A DNA stretch of 25,731 nt, taken from the IMG/VR virus record IMGVR_UViG_3300032156_000069, positions 1 to 25,731 of that record. The stretch is one strand, 5' to 3'. Shown here piece after piece: positions 6,176 through 15,495 of the stretch; the first letter of the stretch is position 1; each line of letters begins with the position of its first letter. Made by a program: the position numbers and the translations under genes. The DNA comes from a virus. The notes beneath the pieces were generated by a model. The model had not been told where the DNA came from. It was given only the letters and a program-made list of their open reading frames with translations, and did no database searches.

Positions 6176-6319
6176 ATGACTAAACAAGAAATAGTTGAAG
6201 AATTGGTACGATTGTATCGCCTCCAAGATGAAGGAAAGAATGTTAGTAAACTCATCCGGGAATTAGAAGAAAGATTGTGTGAACTAATGGGATGCGAAAA
6301 TAATGGACAGGAAGAATGA
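6176..6319 (+). CDS. Small hypothetical protein, 47 aa
   Basis: ATG at 6176 follows AAAAGGAG with good spacing. The product is short, charged and almost wholly helical (begins MTKQEIVEELVRLYRLQDEG, with a second helix around ISKLIRELEERL-like residues 22-38). No family is recognised. It sits alone between two terminators (6101 and 6325) and so is probably a monocistronic transcript. Its first residues TKQE match the start of the odd reading frame at 7079, which may be chance or a hint of relatedness. Confidence 0.6.
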   Translation: MTKQEIVEELVRLYRLQDEGKNVSKLIRELEERLCELMGCENNGQEE

Positions 6320-6324
6320 GAGTG

Positions 6325-6369
6325 ATCCCCGTTTTCTAAAATTGAGAAAGAAGGCGGGGATTTTCTTTT
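6325..6369 (+). terminator. Rho-independent terminator
   Basis: ATCCCCG (6325-6331) pairs with CGGGGAT (6355-6361); inside, TTTTCT pairs with AGAAAG around a short loop. A T-rich tail (TTTTCTTTT) follows. It begins six bases after the stop of the 47-residue gene. Confidence 0.8.
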
Positions 6370-6510
6370 GGAAACAACACAGCCACCGGATTACTCCAAT
6401 GGCTGTTGGTTGCTCCCGGCATATTTCTATGCAAGGATTAGTTCGTGAGAACCAATCACAGTCTACAACAAAAAAGAGAAAATAGCACACCTTAGTTGGT
6501 GTGTTTTTTT
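6370..6510 (+). ncRNA. Possible small RNA or minigenes between two terminators
   Basis: About 140 bases between two terminators hold no ORF of normal size. They contain a 7-bp hairpin ACAGCCA (6379-6385)/TGGCTGT (6400-6406), a small GTGA/TCAC hairpin from 6445, and a competing TTGGTT/AACCAA pairing, then the 6486 terminator. Two overlapping minigenes are also possible: TTG at 6368 to TGA at 6448 (26 residues, METTQPPDYSNGCW start) and GTG at 6445 to TAG at 6495 (16 residues). The sequence cannot decide between RNA and peptides, and no promoter is obvious. Confidence 0.3.
6486..6510 (+). terminator. Rho-independent terminator
   Basis: CACACC-TTAGTT-GGTGTG is a perfect 6-bp hairpin followed at once by seven T. 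It ends six bases before the ATG of the next gene, an unusually tight arrangement. Confidence 0.75.
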
Positions 6511-6747: not shown

Positions 6748-6794
6748 AATAAACCGGATAGTTACCTGATGGTTGATCTACCACCTCTAAACTA

Positions 6795-7040
6795 AGTCAT
6801 AACGGAAAGACTATAAAAGACGATAGGAGGAAACAGATCCGGTGAAGTTGTCCCTGCATACTTCATCAAAAAGGATTAGCGAACAATAGTTGTACCATCA
6901 CGACTACGCTTCTTCTAACTAAGGGCATAGAGCCATTAGAGTAGTTTCTTGTAGTGATATGGTAAGTATTGCCGACAATTAAAGCGGATCAACAATACAA
7001 GATAAACAGAAAGAAATTCCTGTTTGCGGTTTCTGTTATC
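6795..7040 (+). ncRNA. Highly foldable gene-free region, candidate structured RNA
   Basis: From 6748 to 7078 no gene is seen on either strand, yet local helices follow one another: GATCC/GGATT (6836-6840/6873-6877) enclosing TGAAGT/ACTTCA (6843-6848/6860-6865); TACCATCAC (6893-6901) with GTGATATGGTA (6954-6964), enclosing GACTAC/GTAGTT (6902-6907/6941-6946), TCTAA/TTAGA (6914-6918/6936-6940) and GGC/GCC; GTATTG/CAATAC (6966-6971/6993-6998) enclosing CCG/CGG; and GATAAACAGAAA (7001-7012) with TTTCTGTTATC (7030-7040). The nested arrangement suggests a structured noncoding RNA or long leader of about 250 bases. It matches no RNA class I know. Strand is inferred from neighbouring genes. Confidence 0.4.
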
Positions 7041-7078
7041 CCTGTATTAAGTTAATACCACTAACCTAAGTTAAAACT

Positions 7079-7252
7079 CTGACTAAACAAGAACTTAAAA
7101 TCTTATATAAAGCCGGAAAGATTCAATCAAAGGATTATTTTTTGGCACTTGGTAGGATTATCAGATCCGAAACTCCGGATTTTCCTGTTCCCGATAAAAG
7201 TGTAGATATTTTGGCGATTTTTGATGGTAAATTACCGTTGTTTAAGGTTTGA
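7079..7252 (+). CDS. Probable small protein with non-standard CTG start
   Basis: An open frame of 57 codons with gene-like composition, read as (M)TKQELKILYKAGKIQSKDYF and ending KLPLFKV. It has no ATG, GTG or TTG near its start: the only fitting codon is CTG at 7079, which gives an N-terminus like that of the 6176 gene; the next in-frame TTG (in DYFLALG) would remove a third of the frame. No ribosome site precedes it. It begins 38 bases after the foldable RNA region and its stop codon overlaps the -35 box of the next promoter. It may be translated from CTG or be a decayed gene. Confidence 0.4.
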   Translation: MTKQELKILYKAGKIQSKDYFLALGRIIRSETPDFPVPDKSVDILAIFDGKLPLFKV

Positions 7253-7284
7253 CATCAGGATTTAATTAGAGTATACTCTGTCCA
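7249..7284 (+). promoter_or_regulatory. Strong sigma70-type promoter, apparently leaderless
   Basis: TTGACA (7249-7254), a 17-base spacer, TATACT (7272-7277). Six bases separate the -10 box from the ATG at 7284, so the expected first base of the transcript is the A of the ATG. A perfect 12-base palindrome AGAGTATACTCT (7268-7279) covers the -10 box and may be a repressor operator. Confidence 0.75.
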
Positions 7285-10971: not shown

Positions 10972-11267
10972 AAGACTCAAAAGAAAAGATAATCTTGGAA
11001 GATAAGTTAGATGAGTTATTTCCTAAAGGGAAGTGTTCGGAGAGAGGACAGGCTCTTGTACTTTATGCCTTTGCAAAGATTCTTATTGAAGATACGAGGG
11101 AAATCAAAAAAGGTGAAACTTTTAGACGAAGTTATCAAATGGGATACAACGATGCAGTAGCGAAATTAGAAATCCAAATAGCGGAAGAAATGTTGATAGC
11201 TCAAAAAGAAGGGCAACCTACTTCAAGACTTACAAGTTTGGCTATGCGATTAACGGAGTTAAAATGA
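10968..11267 (+). CDS. Hypothetical helical protein, 99 aa
   Basis: ATG overlaps the preceding stop (ATGA), with AAAGG a few bases upstream, and its stop overlaps the next ATG. The protein is almost wholly helical and charged (DSKEKIILEDKLDELFPKG, ALVLYAFAKILIEDTREIKK, GYNDAVAKLEIQIAEEMLIA). No motif is recognised. Confidence 0.65.
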   Translation: MKDSKEKIILEDKLDELFPKGKCSERGQALVLYAFAKILIEDTREIKKGETFRRSYQMGYNDAVAKLEIQIAEEMLIAQKEGQPTSRLTSLAMRLTELK

Positions 11268-11443
11268 AACTACCACTTTGGTTTAGAAAATGGATCGGTT
11301 CTTGGTGGGGATCTTATTGCGAAGTATGTGGAGATAAGTTTGCAGAGGATCAAGAATCCTACAAAGGTGGTTGGGGAATCCGAGAATGGTGCGAGAATAA
11401 GAAATGCCCGGCTTACAAAAAGATATGCAGAGGTAAGTTATGA
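11264..11443 (+). CDS. Small Cys/Trp-rich protein, possible zinc finger, 59 aa
   Basis: ATG overlaps the previous stop and follows CGGAG at five bases. A very aromatic N-terminus (LPLWFRKWIGSWWG) precedes four cysteines, C19-X2-C22 in YCEVCGDKF and C43-X4-C48 in WCENKKCPAYKK, with C55 as an extra. This could coordinate zinc. Function unknown; its stop overlaps the next ATG (ATGA-type at 11440). Confidence 0.6.
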   Translation: MKLPLWFRKWIGSWWGSYCEVCGDKFAEDQESYKGGWGIREWCENKKCPAYKKICRGKL

Positions 11444-11607
11444 AGATTAAACGGGATATGTTTAAGAATGTCCGGGAAGTTGAGATCTCAACCAATGAAC
11501 TTAAAGAGTTGGCTACGGATATTATTGTTCAGGTGGGGTTCTTGAAAGTAGTCGGAAAGATCCCGATAATAAATTACCCATTATCAAAGAAAGATGAAAA
11601 TAACTAA
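11440..11607 (+). CDS. Small hypothetical protein, 55 aa
   Basis: ATG at 11440 overlaps the preceding stop and follows AGAGGTAAGTT, a good ribosome site. The sequence starts MKIKRDMFKNVREVEISTNE and includes a hydrophobic strand-like stretch IIVQVGFLKVVGKIPIINY. No family recognised. Its end overlaps the following gene by 14 bases. Confidence 0.55.
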   Translation: MKIKRDMFKNVREVEISTNELKELATDIIVQVGFLKVVGKIPIINYPLSKKDENN

Positions 11608-11872
11608 ACTTGAGAAGTTGGCAAACCATATAACCGGGGAGGTAAAGATCACGGTTGAAATAACTATCTCTACTTCTGATCTTGCAGAATTTGATTACTT
11701 TGGTCTTGATAAATTCCCGGATGAATCTATCCCGGATGTCTTAGTTGCGGTTGGCAGAATGTATCAAAAACGCATCAAACCGGGCAAAATCAGGCATCCG
11801 GAGGAAAATCGGCTCTCTACAATGCCCGACATTAAATCTTTTACGGGTAAGACGATACCAACTACCTTGTAA
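11594..11872 (+). CDS. Hypothetical protein, 92 aa
   Basis: ATG at 11594 lies inside the previous gene's last codons; only a weak AAAGAAAG site precedes it. The first half looks beta-rich (GEVKITVEITISTSDLAEF); the second contains a short helix (PDVLVAVGRMYQKRIKPGK) and an unstructured C-terminus. No domain is recognised. Its last codons overlap the -35 box of the next promoter. Confidence 0.6.
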   Translation: MKITKLEKLANHITGEVKITVEITISTSDLAEFDYFGLDKFPDESIPDVLVAVGRMYQKRIKPGKIRHPEENRLSTMPDIKSFTGKTIPTTL

Positions 11873-11901: not shown

Positions 11902-12215
11902 TGCCCGTAACCTACGAAAGTATACATATTGAGGAAGCTCAAGAATACTTTTTAGTACCCATTAAAGATCAGGATTCCCTATTTTATCTTGGAAATAAAA
12001 ATAAACTTAACGCCTTAAAAATAGCAATGGATGCCTCCAAAGTTATTGCTACATCCGGTGTTGCAAGTGTCAATGAAGATGAATCCGGGACTCGTTGTTA
12101 CATTCTTTTAGATACGGATAAAACAGGTTGTGAAGAAATAATGAATGAGGTAGACCAAGTTTTAGTGGGGAATTTAGGTATAAAAAATGATAAAAATGAC
12201 ATCAAAAATCCTTAA
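11901..12215 (+). CDS. Hypothetical acidic protein, 104 aa
   Basis: Two in-frame ATGs are possible, 11880 and 11901; neither has a Shine-Dalgarno site. The ATG at 11901 is preferred because a TATAAT box ends seven bases before it. The product begins MPVTYESIHIEEAQEYFLVP and seems alpha/beta (DSLFYLGNKNKLNALKIAMD, RCYILLDTDKTGCEEIMNEV). A charged, asparagine-rich tail ends the protein. No family recognised. It overlaps the next small gene by 20 bases. Confidence 0.6.
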   Translation: MPVTYESIHIEEAQEYFLVPIKDQDSLFYLGNKNKLNALKIAMDASKVIATSGVASVNEDESGTRCYILLDTDKTGCEEIMNEVDQVLVGNLGIKNDKNDIKNP

Positions 12216-12318
12216 AAGGAACTATGCTAAAAGACTAAAAAGGCGTGGTATAGCCAAGAAACACTTAAAGTTATTTAGAAAGGGCATAAAAAAGCGTGGA
12301 AAAAAGGCTAATAAATAA
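12196..12318 (+). CDS. Very basic 40-residue peptide
   Basis: ATG at 12196 inside the previous gene's end; ends at TAA 12318, overlapping the next start. Product begins MTSKILKRNYAKRLKRRGIA and ends KKRGKKAN K; nearly half the residues are Lys or Arg, so nucleic-acid binding is likely. No good ribosome site, so coupled translation is assumed. Too short for family assignment. Confidence 0.45.
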   Translation: MTSKILKRNYAKRLKRRGIAKKHLKLFRKGIKKRGKKANK

Positions 12319-12502
12319 GATAAAAAAGTATGCAAAACTGCGGGGAGGCAAATCATATAACGAGGCAGATCCGGAAAAGTTGATAAGAGCTTTTGAAAAC
12401 GCAACGGCTGAATGGCAAAAGGTTTATGAGGAGGGTATGGATATATACCTCCATTCCATTAAAACCGGAAGGGTGAGAGCCGGTGAAAGTATGGGAAAGT
12501 AA
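12296..12502 (+). CDS. Hypothetical helical protein, 68 aa
   Basis: GTG start at 12296, with AAAGGG 12 bases upstream inside the preceding basic-peptide gene. The protein is helical and charged (KRLINKIKKYAKLRGGKSYN, EKLIRAFENATAEWQKVYEE). No motif recognised. Its TAA stop is the first paired triplet of the long inverted repeat that follows. Confidence 0.55.
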   Translation: MEKRLINKIKKYAKLRGGKSYNEADPEKLIRAFENATAEWQKVYEEGMDIYLHSIKTGRVRAGESMGK

Positions 12503-12629
12503 TTAAGGATCGGATAACTACGCCCATTCTGTAACTTGACTCTTTCGGAGCAGGGCGGTGGTATCTGCGATTGGGCAGGAGCAGACGCTACTTAATGGAG
12601 TGGGTGTAATTGTCCGATGTCTTAATTAT
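12499..12629 (+). ncRNA. Candidate structured RNA closed by a ~27-bp imperfect stem
   Basis: The arm ATCGGATAACTACGCCCA (12509-12526) pairs with TGGGTGTAATTGTCCGAT (12601-12618) over 18 positions with two G-T pairs and one C-A mismatch. Beyond a small internal loop, AATTAAG (12501-12507) pairs perfectly with CTTAATT (12621-12627), and two more pairs extend it. The 74-base apex can form CTC/GAG plus CTG/CAG (12529-12552 region) and GTA-TCTGC (12561-12568)/GCAGA (12581-12585)-TAC (12589-12591) hairpins, giving a three-way-junction outline. There is no T-run, so it is not a terminator. It fits no RNA family I recognise. It fills the gap between two genes exactly. Confidence 0.5.
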
Positions 12630-12650
12630 GATTCAATTGCAAGTTATAAT
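12622..12650 (+). promoter_or_regulatory. Weak candidate promoter
   Basis: A perfect TATAAT (12645-12650) lies 17 bases after TTAATT (12622-12627), a poor -35. Transcription would start around 12657, inside the annotated gene's first codons, so either the real start is downstream or the box is fortuitous. Confidence 0.25.
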
Positions 12651-12651
12651 A

Positions 12652-12843
12652 ATGTCGGAGGTTAATTCTTGGATAGTGGGAAATAAAACTCCCACTCCAC
12701 TAACCTACATTATTAAGAATAATCCGGAAGTGCAGACAAGAACAATCCGGGCAGCAATTGAAGCATTATGCAGGAAAGGTTATCTTCGCAAATCTTGCAT
12801 GAGAGGACAGGCGACTTATGTAAAGTTGAGGAGTATTTTCTAA
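12652..12843 (+). CDS. Putative small winged-helix-like protein, 63 aa
   Basis: Start is uncertain: ATG at 12652 (MSEVNSWIVGNK) has no Shine-Dalgarno site, while TTG at 12610, in frame and preceded by GGAG at nine bases, would begin inside the long RNA stem. The core TPLTYIIKNNPEVQTRTIRA followed by AIEALCRKGYLRKSCMRGQA and TYVKLRSIF has the helix-helix-helix-wing rhythm of a winged-helix DNA-binding domain (recognition helix TRTIRAAIEALCRKG, wing around the RGQATYVKL stretch). This is inference from pattern only. A regulator or packaging-related DNA binder would suit its place before the terminase genes. Confidence 0.5.
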   Translation: MSEVNSWIVGNKTPTPLTYIIKNNPEVQTRTIRAAIEALCRKGYLRKSCMRGQATYVKLRSIF

Positions 12844-12845
12844 TT

Positions 12846-13079
12846 ATGGAAACTAAAACTAAAAGAAATACCGGTGGTAGACATCAGGCTAAGTATGATC
12901 GTCAATGGCAAAGGACAGCCAAGAATAAGATTAAACATATTGAAGATCACAATGGTGATAAGAGCATTATTGAAAAATATAAAATAAATCCTAAGTGGAA
13001 AGGTAGTAAAAGACCGATTGTGAAGGGTAAAATCGGCAAGAGCAAAAGAAAAATCTATGACCAAAAAGAAAGATCCTAA
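12846..13079 (+). CDS. Basic hypothetical protein, 77 aa
   Basis: ATG at 12846, two bases after the preceding stop; a GAGGAG lies 12 bases upstream, so reinitiation is likely. The product is strongly basic and hydrophilic (METKTKRNTGGRHQAKYDRQ, KNKIKHIEDHNGDKSIIEKY, KGSKRPIVKGKIGKSKRKIY). It probably binds nucleic acid or is largely disordered. No family recognised. It overlaps the small terminase gene by 23 bases. Confidence 0.55.
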   Translation: METKTKRNTGGRHQAKYDRQWQRTAKNKIKHIEDHNGDKSIIEKYKINPKWKGSKRPIVKGKIGKSKRKIYDQKERS

Positions 13080-13578
13080 AGATATTAAAAAAGCCGGTAG
13101 AAAGACCAAATGGACACCGAAACTAAACGATAAGATCATTGAATACTTTAGTCTTGAACCATCTTATGAACGGGAAGTTATGCATACCAACAAGAAGGGT
13201 GAAACTTGGTCAAGTTACGAGGATAAACCTAACCGATTGCCCACTCTATTCCGCTTTGCAATGCTTAATCATATATCGCAGGATGCTATGGAAGATTGGG
13301 CGAAGGAAGAAAACAAGGACAAGTATCCCGGATTCATCGGATCATACAAGGCTGCTAAACAATTACAGAAGGAGTTTTTAATAGATAACGCACTATCCGG
13401 ACTGTACAATCCCACATTTTCAATCTTTACAGCTAAAAACATTACAGATATGAGGGATCAAATGCCCATGCTTACTCCCGATGGAGCAAATGTTATTGGT
13501 GGATTTATTTTAGTTAAGCCACCGGAAACTAAAGAAGATGCCAAAAAAGATATACCCGGAAGTACACCTAACAATTAA
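13057..13578 (+). CDS. terS: Terminase small subunit
   Basis: 173 residues. The small terminase recognises phage DNA and loads it on the large subunit for packaging. Seen: a basic N-terminus (TKKKDPKDIKKAGRKTKW), a helix-rich centre with a possible helix-turn-helix (RLPTLFRFAMLNHISQDAME and IGSYKAAKQLQKEFLIDNAL), and the segment GLYNPTFSIFTAKNITDMRD (about 116-135), a typical small-terminase oligomerisation-region motif. The C-terminal tail is disordered-looking. Its 3' end overlaps the large terminase by 41 bases, the usual coupling of this pair. Confidence 0.8.
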   Translation: MTKKKDPKDIKKAGRKTKWTPKLNDKIIEYFSLEPSYEREVMHTNKKGETWSSYEDKPNRLPTLFRFAMLNHISQDAMEDWAKEENKDKYPGFIGSYKAAKQLQKEFLIDNALSGLYNPTFSIFTAKNITDMRDQMPMLTPDGANVIGGFILVKPPETKEDAKKDIPGSTPNN

Positions 13579-14950
13579 ACAGGCTATCGCTTGGGATTTC
13601 CTAACCGATCACATAACACAGTTTTTACTCTTTGGTGGTGGTGCAGGTGGAGCAAAGTCTTGGCTTGGCTGCGTATGGTTACTCCTAATGTGCTATGAGT
13701 ATCCCGGATCAAAATGGTTTATAGGTCGTAAAGAACTCAAACGCCTAATGGCTTCCACTTACATAACCTTTATTAAGGTTTGCCAAGCATATAAAGTACC
13801 GATAACAGCATACAAGTTAGATGGCAAATACAATGTTATTGAACTTCAAAACGGATCAAAGATTGATCTGTTGGATCTTGCACATCAACCGGCAGATCCT
13901 TTGTATGAACGCTTTGGATCGTTGGAGTACACCGGAGGGTGGATTGAGGAGGCAGGGGAAGTAGAGTTTATGTGTTTTGATGTTCTAAAAACAAGGATAG
14001 GAAGGCATAGAAATGATGAGTTTGGTCTGTTCCCGGCAAAGATGCTTCTTACCTGCAACCCTACGCAAAACTTTCTATACAGAATCTTTTACAAACCATT
14101 TAGTGATAAAAGACTTTCAGAAAATATGCAGTTTATTCAAGCACTTGTTAAAGATAATCCGTTTCAAGAATCGGAATATGCACATCAATTGGATCAGATT
14201 TCAGATCCGGTACTTCGTGCAAGACTCCGTGATGGTCTTTGGGAATATAGTGCAGATTCCATGAACCTTATGAACTTTGATGCGATTATGCAGATGTTTG
14301 TTAATACCGTGCCTTATGATCAAAAGAAATATCTAACGGCAGATGTTGCCCGGTTTGGATCAGATAAGATTGTTTATGGTATATGGCAGGGAATGAATCT
14401 TGTTGAACTTGGTGAAAAAGCTAAACAAGCAACAACTCAAACAGAGGAGGACATCCGGGATTTACTTGCCAAGAAGTTTATTCCCTACAACTACGGCATT
14501 GTTGATGAAGATGGTTTGGGTGGTGGTATTGTGGATCATCTGTATGGCATCAAAGGATTTATGGGTGGAAGATCGGCACTAATTGATCCAAAGTTTACGG
14601 AGAAACGAAACTACAAGAACCTGCGAACTCAATGTTACTTCTTACTTGCTGATAGAATCAATCGCCATGAGATACAAATATCGGCACAACTTACCGAAAC
14701 CCAAAGGGAGTTGATCATTACAGATTTACAGCAGATTAAAAGAATGGATACGGCAGCCGATGCTCCACTTCAAGTTATTCCTAAAGAGGAAATCAAAGAC
14801 GCAATTGGTAGAAGCCCGGACTACGGAGATATGCTTATGATGCGAATGTATTTTGATCTTGTGAAATCTACCGGTGAATACCATGCTCCAAATGCCTCTA
14901 AGATAATCGGAGCAGGTGGATTAACAGAATGGGGAGGCATACCCTTTTAA
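13538..14950 (+). CDS. terL: Terminase large subunit
   Basis: 470-residue packaging motor with ATPase and nuclease. Seen in order: Walker A-like GGGAGGAKS (33-41), a Walker B with catalytic pair GGWIEEA (E137, E138), coupling motif LTCNP (171-175), then an RNase H-like nuclease with LTADVARFG (D269), IVDEDG (D323, D325) and SPDYGD (D428, D431). The Walker A has alanine before the lysine (GGAKS) rather than the usual glycine or serine, a variant seen in some terminase lineages. Length is normal. The start within the small-terminase gene is supported by CTAAAGAAG upstream. It is followed by an inserted HNH gene and then the portal. Confidence 0.93.
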   Translation: MPKKIYPEVHLTIKQAIAWDFLTDHITQFLLFGGGAGGAKSWLGCVWLLLMCYEYPGSKWFIGRKELKRLMASTYITFIKVCQAYKVPITAYKLDGKYNVIELQNGSKIDLLDLAHQPADPLYERFGSLEYTGGWIEEAGEVEFMCFDVLKTRIGRHRNDEFGLFPAKMLLTCNPTQNFLYRIFYKPFSDKRLSENMQFIQALVKDNPFQESEYAHQLDQISDPVLRARLRDGLWEYSADSMNLMNFDAIMQMFVNTVPYDQKKYLTADVARFGSDKIVYGIWQGMNLVELGEKAKQATTQTEEDIRDLLAKKFIPYNYGIVDEDGLGGGIVDHLYGIKGFMGGRSALIDPKFTEKRNYKNLRTQCYFLLADRINRHEIQISAQLTETQRELIITDLQQIKRMDTAADAPLQVIPKEEIKDAIGRSPDYGDMLMMRMYFDLVKSTGEYHAPNASKIIGAGGLTEWGGIPF

Positions 14951-14995
14951 TTGCAAAATATACGCAAAAAACTGCATAAATCGTGTTGTTTTATG

Positions 14996-15031
14996 TTGCA
15001 AAAGGTATTTTTTTAGAGAATACTTATATTG
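14996..15031 (+). promoter_or_regulatory. Candidate leaderless promoter for the HNH gene
   Basis: TTGCAA (14996-15001), a 17-base spacer, AATACT (15019-15024), then six bases to the GTG at 15031. Each box matches consensus at four of six positions. The spacing equals that of the promoters at 7284 and 11901. Confidence 0.4.
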
Positions 15032-15495
15032 TGAAAAAGATTAGTTTGGTAACAGAGGGACTTTTTGCTCTTGTTGATGACGAAGATTTTGAATATATCA
15101 ACAAGTATAGTTGGTATCTCGTAAGAGGTCGTGCAGCAACATTCAATAATGGCAAGACCGTTTATATGTACAGACTAATAATGAACCCGGCAAAGGATAT
15201 GGAAATAGATCATATCAATCACGACAAGTTGGACAATAGAAAGGCAAATCTACGAGTTTGTACCCGGCTGCAAAACACATGGAATAGTAAAGTACATAAA
15301 GACAATGTTACGGGATTCAGGGGTGTAAGTTTGCAGGGCGATAAATACATGGCTCAAGTGAGTGTTGACGGAGATAGAGTGTTTTTAGGTCGCTTTGATT
15401 CCCCCAAAGAAGCTGCAAGTGCTTACAATAAGTTTGCTACTGAAAATCGTGGGGAGTTTGCTTATGTAAATAGTTTTGATACAGAAGGGTTTTAA
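15031..15495 (+). CDS. HNH-AP2 homing endonuclease
   Basis: 154 residues from GTG at 15031. This start is chosen because relatives typically begin KKI-x-L-T-x-G-x-x-A-L-V-D-D-E; earlier in-frame starts such as 14983 add unrelated residues. The N-terminal part has LVDDEDFEYINKYSWYLVRG; the HNH centre is EIDHINHDKLDNRKANLR with D60, H61, N69 and N73; the C-terminal AP2-type DNA-binding domain spans about 92-148 (GFRGVSLQGDKYMAQVSV, LGRFDSPKEAASAYNKFA). Such free-standing genes nick or cut DNA of related phages and spread by repair. No intron is evident: terminase and portal look intact. It has no ribosome site, but a suitable promoter box directly before it. Confidence 0.88.
   Translation: MKKISLVTEGLFALVDDEDFEYINKYSWYLVRGRAATFNNGKTVYMYRLIMNPAKDMEIDHINHDKLDNRKANLRVCTRLQNTWNSKVHKDNVTGFRGVSLQGDKYMAQVSVDGDRVFLGRFDSPKEAASAYNKFATENRGEFAYVNSFDTEGF

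What the first reader, a model, noticed from the sequence alone, without database searches (positions are those of the whole stretch)
12499..12629. ~27-bp imperfect stem enclosing a 74-base apex, exactly filling an intergenic gap before the terminase block
Arms at 12501-12526 and 12601-12627 pair over 25 of about 27 positions, with wobble pairs and one mismatch, which is the pattern expected from an RNA helix kept by selection rather than a recent DNA duplication. The apex forms two further hairpins. It begins at a stop codon and ends where a new gene begins, lacks a T-run, and lies just upstream of the packaging genes. It could be a small RNA, a cis-regulator or RNase III site; phi29 has a packaging RNA, but no similarity to it is visible.
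Basis: partly seen in the sequence, partly recalled or inferred. Interest (0 to 1): 0.65.

Follow-up and report, generated by a model that had tools for sequence, protein, structure and literature searches.

The report
Stop-to-start bridging hairpin before packaging genes
Between two genes just ahead of its DNA-packaging genes, this uncultured phage carries a ~130-base stretch that folds into a long forked hairpin, and several distant relatives keep a similar folded element in exactly the same slot although most of its letters have changed, so it is probably a working RNA switch or processing site rather than a chance palindrome.

Summary
The feature is real and stronger than first described. 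On the + strand, 12499-12629 folds into a 33-bp stem (7 G-U pairs, one C-A mismatch, one bulged G) topped by two hairpins: -59.9 kcal/mol, z -7.4, 0 of 200 shuffles as stable. Rfam has no match. Searches through terminase and portal proteins found the same slot in relatives: small ORF, element, winged-helix gene, terS, terL. A long inverted repeat fills the slot in about 8 of about 15 lineages and is absent in others. L005 and L108 keep all 35 pairs, 3 through changes on both sides and 4 through G-U changes on the + strand. The window shares with them a hairpin with a 12-base loop, G[A/C]UUGGGCAGGA. In the five lineages that have both the element and the winged-helix gene, the small ORF's stop codon lies in the 5' arm and the winged-helix start lies in or just after the 3' arm. 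I favour a cis-acting intercistronic RNA switch coupling the two genes (0.40). Rivals are RNase III processing or small-RNA release (0.25) and a DNA-level packaging site (0.20). Strand preference varies between lineages, so RNA action is not proven. No transcript data exist.

The parts
12499..12532 (+). 5' arm of the main stem (19 + 14 bp); contains the stop codon TAA (12500-12502) of the upstream small ORF
   Evidence: fold; ORF list
12535..12554 (+). apical hairpin 1 (CUUGACUCUUUCGGAGCAGG)
   Evidence: fold
12557..12592 (+). apical hairpin 2, carrying the 12-nt loop GAUUGGGCAGGA at 12569-12580, shared (11 of 12 bases) with the L005/L108 elements
12595..12629 (+). 3' arm of the main stem; contains an SD-like GGAG (12597-12600) and TTG start (12610) of the next ORF, with the alternative ATG at 12628 facing the upstream stop codon
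   Evidence: start region aligned with L007 homologue
12296..12502 (+). upstream small ORF (68 aa), conserved family 'S' in relatives, no known domain
12610..12843 (+). downstream ORF, winged-helix-like family 'W' (start 12610 TTG or 12628 ATG)
   Evidence: weak Pfam HTH_27; homologues
13057..13578 (+). terminase small subunit (P22 gp3-like, weak)
13538..14950 (+). terminase large subunit

Best explanation
It is a cis-acting intercistronic RNA element. The long helix forms in the polycistronic mRNA between the small ORF and the winged-helix/terS/terL cassette. It buries the ribosome-binding region or start of the winged-helix gene and at the same time brings the upstream stop codon next to that start. 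Ribosomes finishing the small ORF would open the base of the helix and let the downstream gene be translated (coupling). The conserved apical loop (UUGGGCAGGA) would be the docking site of a regulator that stabilises or opens the helix. Shown here: structure, conserved slot, compensatory changes in one pair of relatives, stop/start geometry in five lineages, shared loop. Inferred: transcription, translational effect, the regulator.
For: z -7.4 on +. The structure sits between S and W in window, L005, L108, L405 and L436/437; in each the S stop lies within about the first 12 nt of the 5' arm and the W start lies in or within a few nt of the 3' arm. In L436 the stop UAA faces the UAU of the start region, and in the window the stop faces AUG 12628. 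In L156, which lacks the element, S and W overlap by 46 nt, so close coupling seems the ancestral or default arrangement. L005/L108: 35/35 pairs kept, 3 double and 4 one-sided G-U changes on the + strand. The 12-nt loop is shared by window and L005/L108 in the same kind of closed hairpin. GGGCAGG is enriched in structured intergenic gaps of these phages (7 seen, 0.8 expected, near-duplicate contigs included).
Against: In L419, L429 and L410 there is no winged-helix gene, and terS starts about 20-30 nt beyond the stem, so start-site burial is not universal. L405, L429, L419 and slightly L005 fold better as the - strand, which an mRNA element does not predict. A single-sequence covariance model of the window element finds no relative, and the L005/L108 model recognises only the loop hairpin in the window. 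L109 has lost the 5' arm through a deletion yet looks otherwise normal. No transcript or translation data exist.
Confidence: 0.4

Rival explanations
1. RNase III processing site or source of a stable small RNA: the long dsRNA is cut out of the polycistronic transcript, separating the upstream mRNA from the packaging mRNA and possibly releasing a forked RNA with an exposed loop.
For: More than 25 bp of near-continuous helix with arm sequence free to vary; other long hairpins occur at other gene junctions of related phages (L422:1650-1735, L472:3900-4050, L461, L458, L157:4977).
Against: Does not explain the shared loop or the close stop/start placement; an RNA processing site should also favour G-U on one strand, which is not seen across the clade.
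Confidence: 0.25
2. DNA-level site: an inverted repeat used as DNA, for example a cos/pac or terminase-binding site next to terS, or another protein-bound dyad whose two halves evolve together.
For: Location next to terS; no consistent strand preference among lineages (33:25); G+C-rich short core. HK97-type cos sites lie next to the terminase genes (PMC10448857).
Against: In the window 7 G-U against 1 A-C and 23.6 kcal/mol better on +; all one-sided changes between L005 and L108 are G-U on +. TerS resembles P22 gp3, and P22-type pac sites lie inside the gene (own knowledge). Arms are complementary at nearly every position without conserved sequence, unlike usual protein sites.
Confidence: 0.2
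3. A small non-autonomous mobile element (MITE-like inverted-repeat insert) tolerated at gene junctions.
For: Presence/absence pattern in the slot; similar apices (L157, L422) at other junctions.
Against: No target-site duplication noticed, no repeated copies in the window, no near-identical copies in IMG/VR outside this phage group; each lineage's arms differ.
Confidence: 0.1
4. A chance or recently formed palindrome that is decaying.
For: Arm differences are mostly transitions in both directions when pooled.
Against: z -7.4; same slot in about 8 lineages; compensatory changes.
Confidence: 0.05

Closest known systems
Translational-coupling hairpins that bury a downstream start (phage and ribosomal-protein operons)
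   Same: Stop codon in the 5' arm, start or SD in the 3' arm, upstream translation would open the stem
   Different: Much longer helix, forked apex with shared loop; no translation data
T7-type intercistronic RNase III sites
   Same: Long imperfect dsRNA exactly between genes of a phage operon
   Different: Conserved apical loop; no processing evidence; bigger, three-way junction
phi29 packaging RNA (pRNA)
   Same: Structured RNA candidate near packaging genes in a phage
   Different: No Rfam match; this phage has terS/terL; located in an intercistronic gap
cos/pac sites of tailed phages
   Same: Next to terS
   Different: Helix-level conservation with G-U pairs in the window; no sequence similarity tested to known cos/pac

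Membership tests
phi29-type pRNA | Match to the Rfam model (whole library scanned) | tested here: not met
   no family above gathering; only chance miRNA match at E 4.7
Intrinsic terminator | G+C-rich stem followed by T-run | tested here: not met
   none found in 12000-13600; sequence after the stem is ATGATTCAATTG
Translational-coupling hairpin | Upstream stop in 5' arm and downstream start/SD in or at 3' arm | tested here: met
   window, L005, L108, L405, L436; not so in L419, L429, L410
Translational-coupling hairpin | Downstream translation depends on upstream translation | not testable with these tools
   needs reporter assays
RNase III processing site | Double-stranded stretch of about 20 bp or more | tested here: met
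   33 bp with one mismatch and one bulge
RNase III processing site | Cleavage in vivo or in vitro | not testable with these tools
   no RNA data
Conserved structured RNA family | Covariation with pairing kept on one strand | tested here: inconclusive
   one search supports it for L005/L108 (only two distinct sequences); searches show no uniform strand preference
cos/pac site | Virion DNA ends or terminase binding at the site | not testable with these tools
   contigs only; no virion end data
MITE-like mobile element | Multiple near-identical copies | tested here: not met
   one copy in window; hits only in related phages or chance

The most novel reading that the evidence does not exclude
A previously undescribed family of 'bridging' RNA hairpins in a clade of uncultured phages. 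A long, sequence-free stem folds stop and start codons of neighbouring genes together, and a GGGCAGG-bearing apical hairpin is read by a common (host or phage) factor. Copies sit at several gene junctions, most often ahead of the packaging cassette.
Probability: 0.25. Interest if true: 0.65.

Novelty: new variant of a known kind. Interest (0 to 1): 0.48.

Why it matters
If it works as proposed, it would be an RNA-level control point for making the DNA-packaging machinery in a group of phages known only from metagenomes. A defined element, loop motif and set of natural variants (present, absent, arm-deleted) make it directly testable. If it is DNA, it would mark the packaging site of the group.

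Tried and rejected
Rfam at gathering and relaxed thresholds: nothing. A direct DNA pattern from the 3' arm in IMG/VR found none. DNA and protein searches of named phages found only distant TerL relatives (Bacteroides, Polaribacter, Flavobacterium phages) and none with the small ORF or winged-helix protein. Window-type loop pattern in IMG/VR: 51 hits, none a convincing structured relative. Loop complement in the phages or E. coli rRNA as an antisense target: no enrichment. tRNA-like reading of the L005 - strand: ARAGORN finds none. The 51-nt identical apex of L005/L108 is not by itself evidence, because longer identical runs exist elsewhere between them. Ribosomal bypassing between S and W: not tested beyond noting that the frames differ. 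Two genome-wide stem scans timed out. The literature searches returned nothing on an RNA upstream of terS.

Full report
What is there. The window is a 25.7-kb record of a virus. Its terminase, portal and capsid genes define an uncultured phage group; named phages give only distant TerL matches. At 12499-12629 the + strand folds into a 33-bp stem of two stacked parts (19 and 14 bp) separated by one C-A mismatch, with one bulged G and seven G-U pairs, crowned by two hairpins. Energy is -59.9 kcal/mol, z -7.4, with no shuffle of 200 as stable. The - strand is much weaker (-36.3). Among 140-nt windows of the whole record it is the strongest + strand fold; only the hairpin-rich region around 6321 on the - strand is slightly stronger. 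There is no terminator tail and no Rfam family.

Where it sits. The element begins on the stop codon of a 68-aa ORF (family S) and ends in the start region of a 77-aa winged-helix-like ORF (family W). The W homologue in L007 aligns from close to the N terminus, so W probably begins at TTG 12610, with an SD-like GGAG nine bases upstream, or at ATG 12628. Both starts are inside or at the base of the 3' arm, and ATG 12628 faces the S stop codon across the helix. terS and terL follow.

Relatives. TerL and portal searches of IMG/VR gave about 200 loci. Iterated protein profiles located S in 20 contigs and W in 30. A long inverted repeat fills the slot behind S in window, L005 (= L004), L108 (= L076), L405, L436/L437, L410, L419/L421 and L429. 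It is absent in L156, L413-415, L441, L452, L454 and L465; S is inverted in L003. I count about 8 of about 15 lineages; the count is by eye from near-duplicate contigs. In the lineages with the element and W, the S stop lies in the first dozen bases of the 5' arm and the W start is in or just after the 3' arm. In L156, without the element, S and W overlap by 46 nt. In L419, L429 and L410 there is no W: the element is followed directly by terS, and in L419/L429 the 5' arm lies inside the S coding sequence. Contig L109 carries a deletion joining the middle of S to the apex and removing the 5' arm; it may be a natural mutant or an assembly error.

Selection on pairing. L005 and L108 are the only distinct pair that align end to end. 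All 35 pairs are kept, 3 by changes on both sides and 4 by one-sided changes that are G-U on + and would be A-C on -. Sliding the partners removes all double changes. With two sequences the shuffle control is weak (56/500), so this supports the structure but does not prove it.

The shared loop. The window hairpin 12564-12585 and the L005/L108 hairpin have the same 12-nt loop G[A/C]UUGGGCAGGA closed by five pairs; the model built from L005/L108 finds precisely this hairpin in the window element when filters are off (10.4 bits, E 0.015 in 351 bases). L436/437 carry CGGGGCAGGUAAC in the apex. Two further long hairpins at other gene junctions, L422:1650-1735 (UUGGGCAGGG) and L157:4977-5050 (GGGCAGGAA), have it at the tip. 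GGGCAGG is over-represented in structured gaps (7 against 0.8 expected; about 5 after removing near-duplicates). The strand excess of the motif is not informative, because the whole loci are purine-rich on +.

RNA or DNA. The window (7:1 G-U to A-C), L436 and L410 favour a + strand RNA. L405, L429 and L419 are better folded on the - strand, and L005/L108 are near even. Pooled counts are 33:25 (p 0.18). The clade as a whole therefore does not prove that the pairing acts in an mRNA, and a DNA-level dyad near terS stays possible.

Conclusion. The element is conserved by position and pairing within part of a phage clade, and the most economical reading is a cis-acting intercistronic RNA that couples or gates translation of the genes leading into terS-terL, with a docked loop. 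Processing by RNase III and a DNA packaging site are the main rivals. A pRNA-like role has no support.

Noticed in passing
L021:713-839: terL reading frame is interrupted near the Walker A motif by about 37 nt containing a stop codon and a strong GC hairpin. Could be a translational bypass element, an insertion, or an assembly error.
   Followed up: no
L405:2131-4077: The terminase large subunit ORF contains an intein-like splicing domain (Pfam Intein_splicing, E 4.6e-7, just below cutoff).
   Followed up: partly
L429:1581-1800 and L419:1057-1290: Highly structured non-coding regions rich in short repeats (GTCGTCAT in L429, TTGGTCA in L419) about 1 kb upstream of the slot in both phages; possibly iteron-like origins. 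No clear counterpart at 11200-11700 of the window.
   Followed up: partly
window 6300-6510: Cluster of strong hairpins on both strands (z -5.5 on -), with T-rich stretches after some of them on +; probably terminators.
   Followed up: partly
window 6748-7283: 535-base stretch without a convincing gene, with moderately strong fold (z -4.3) and no tRNA.
   Followed up: no
window 14983-15495: Stand-alone HNH endonuclease gene (Pfam HNH_3) between terL and portal, likely a homing-type insertion; a similar gene lies upstream of terL in L008.
   Followed up: no
L472:3890-4050: Another long imperfect stem with several apical hairpins bridging the terL stop codon and the portal start.
   Followed up: partly
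L109:5200-5280 (reverse strand): Deletion joining the middle of the small ORF to the element's apex, removing the whole 5' arm.
   Followed up: partly
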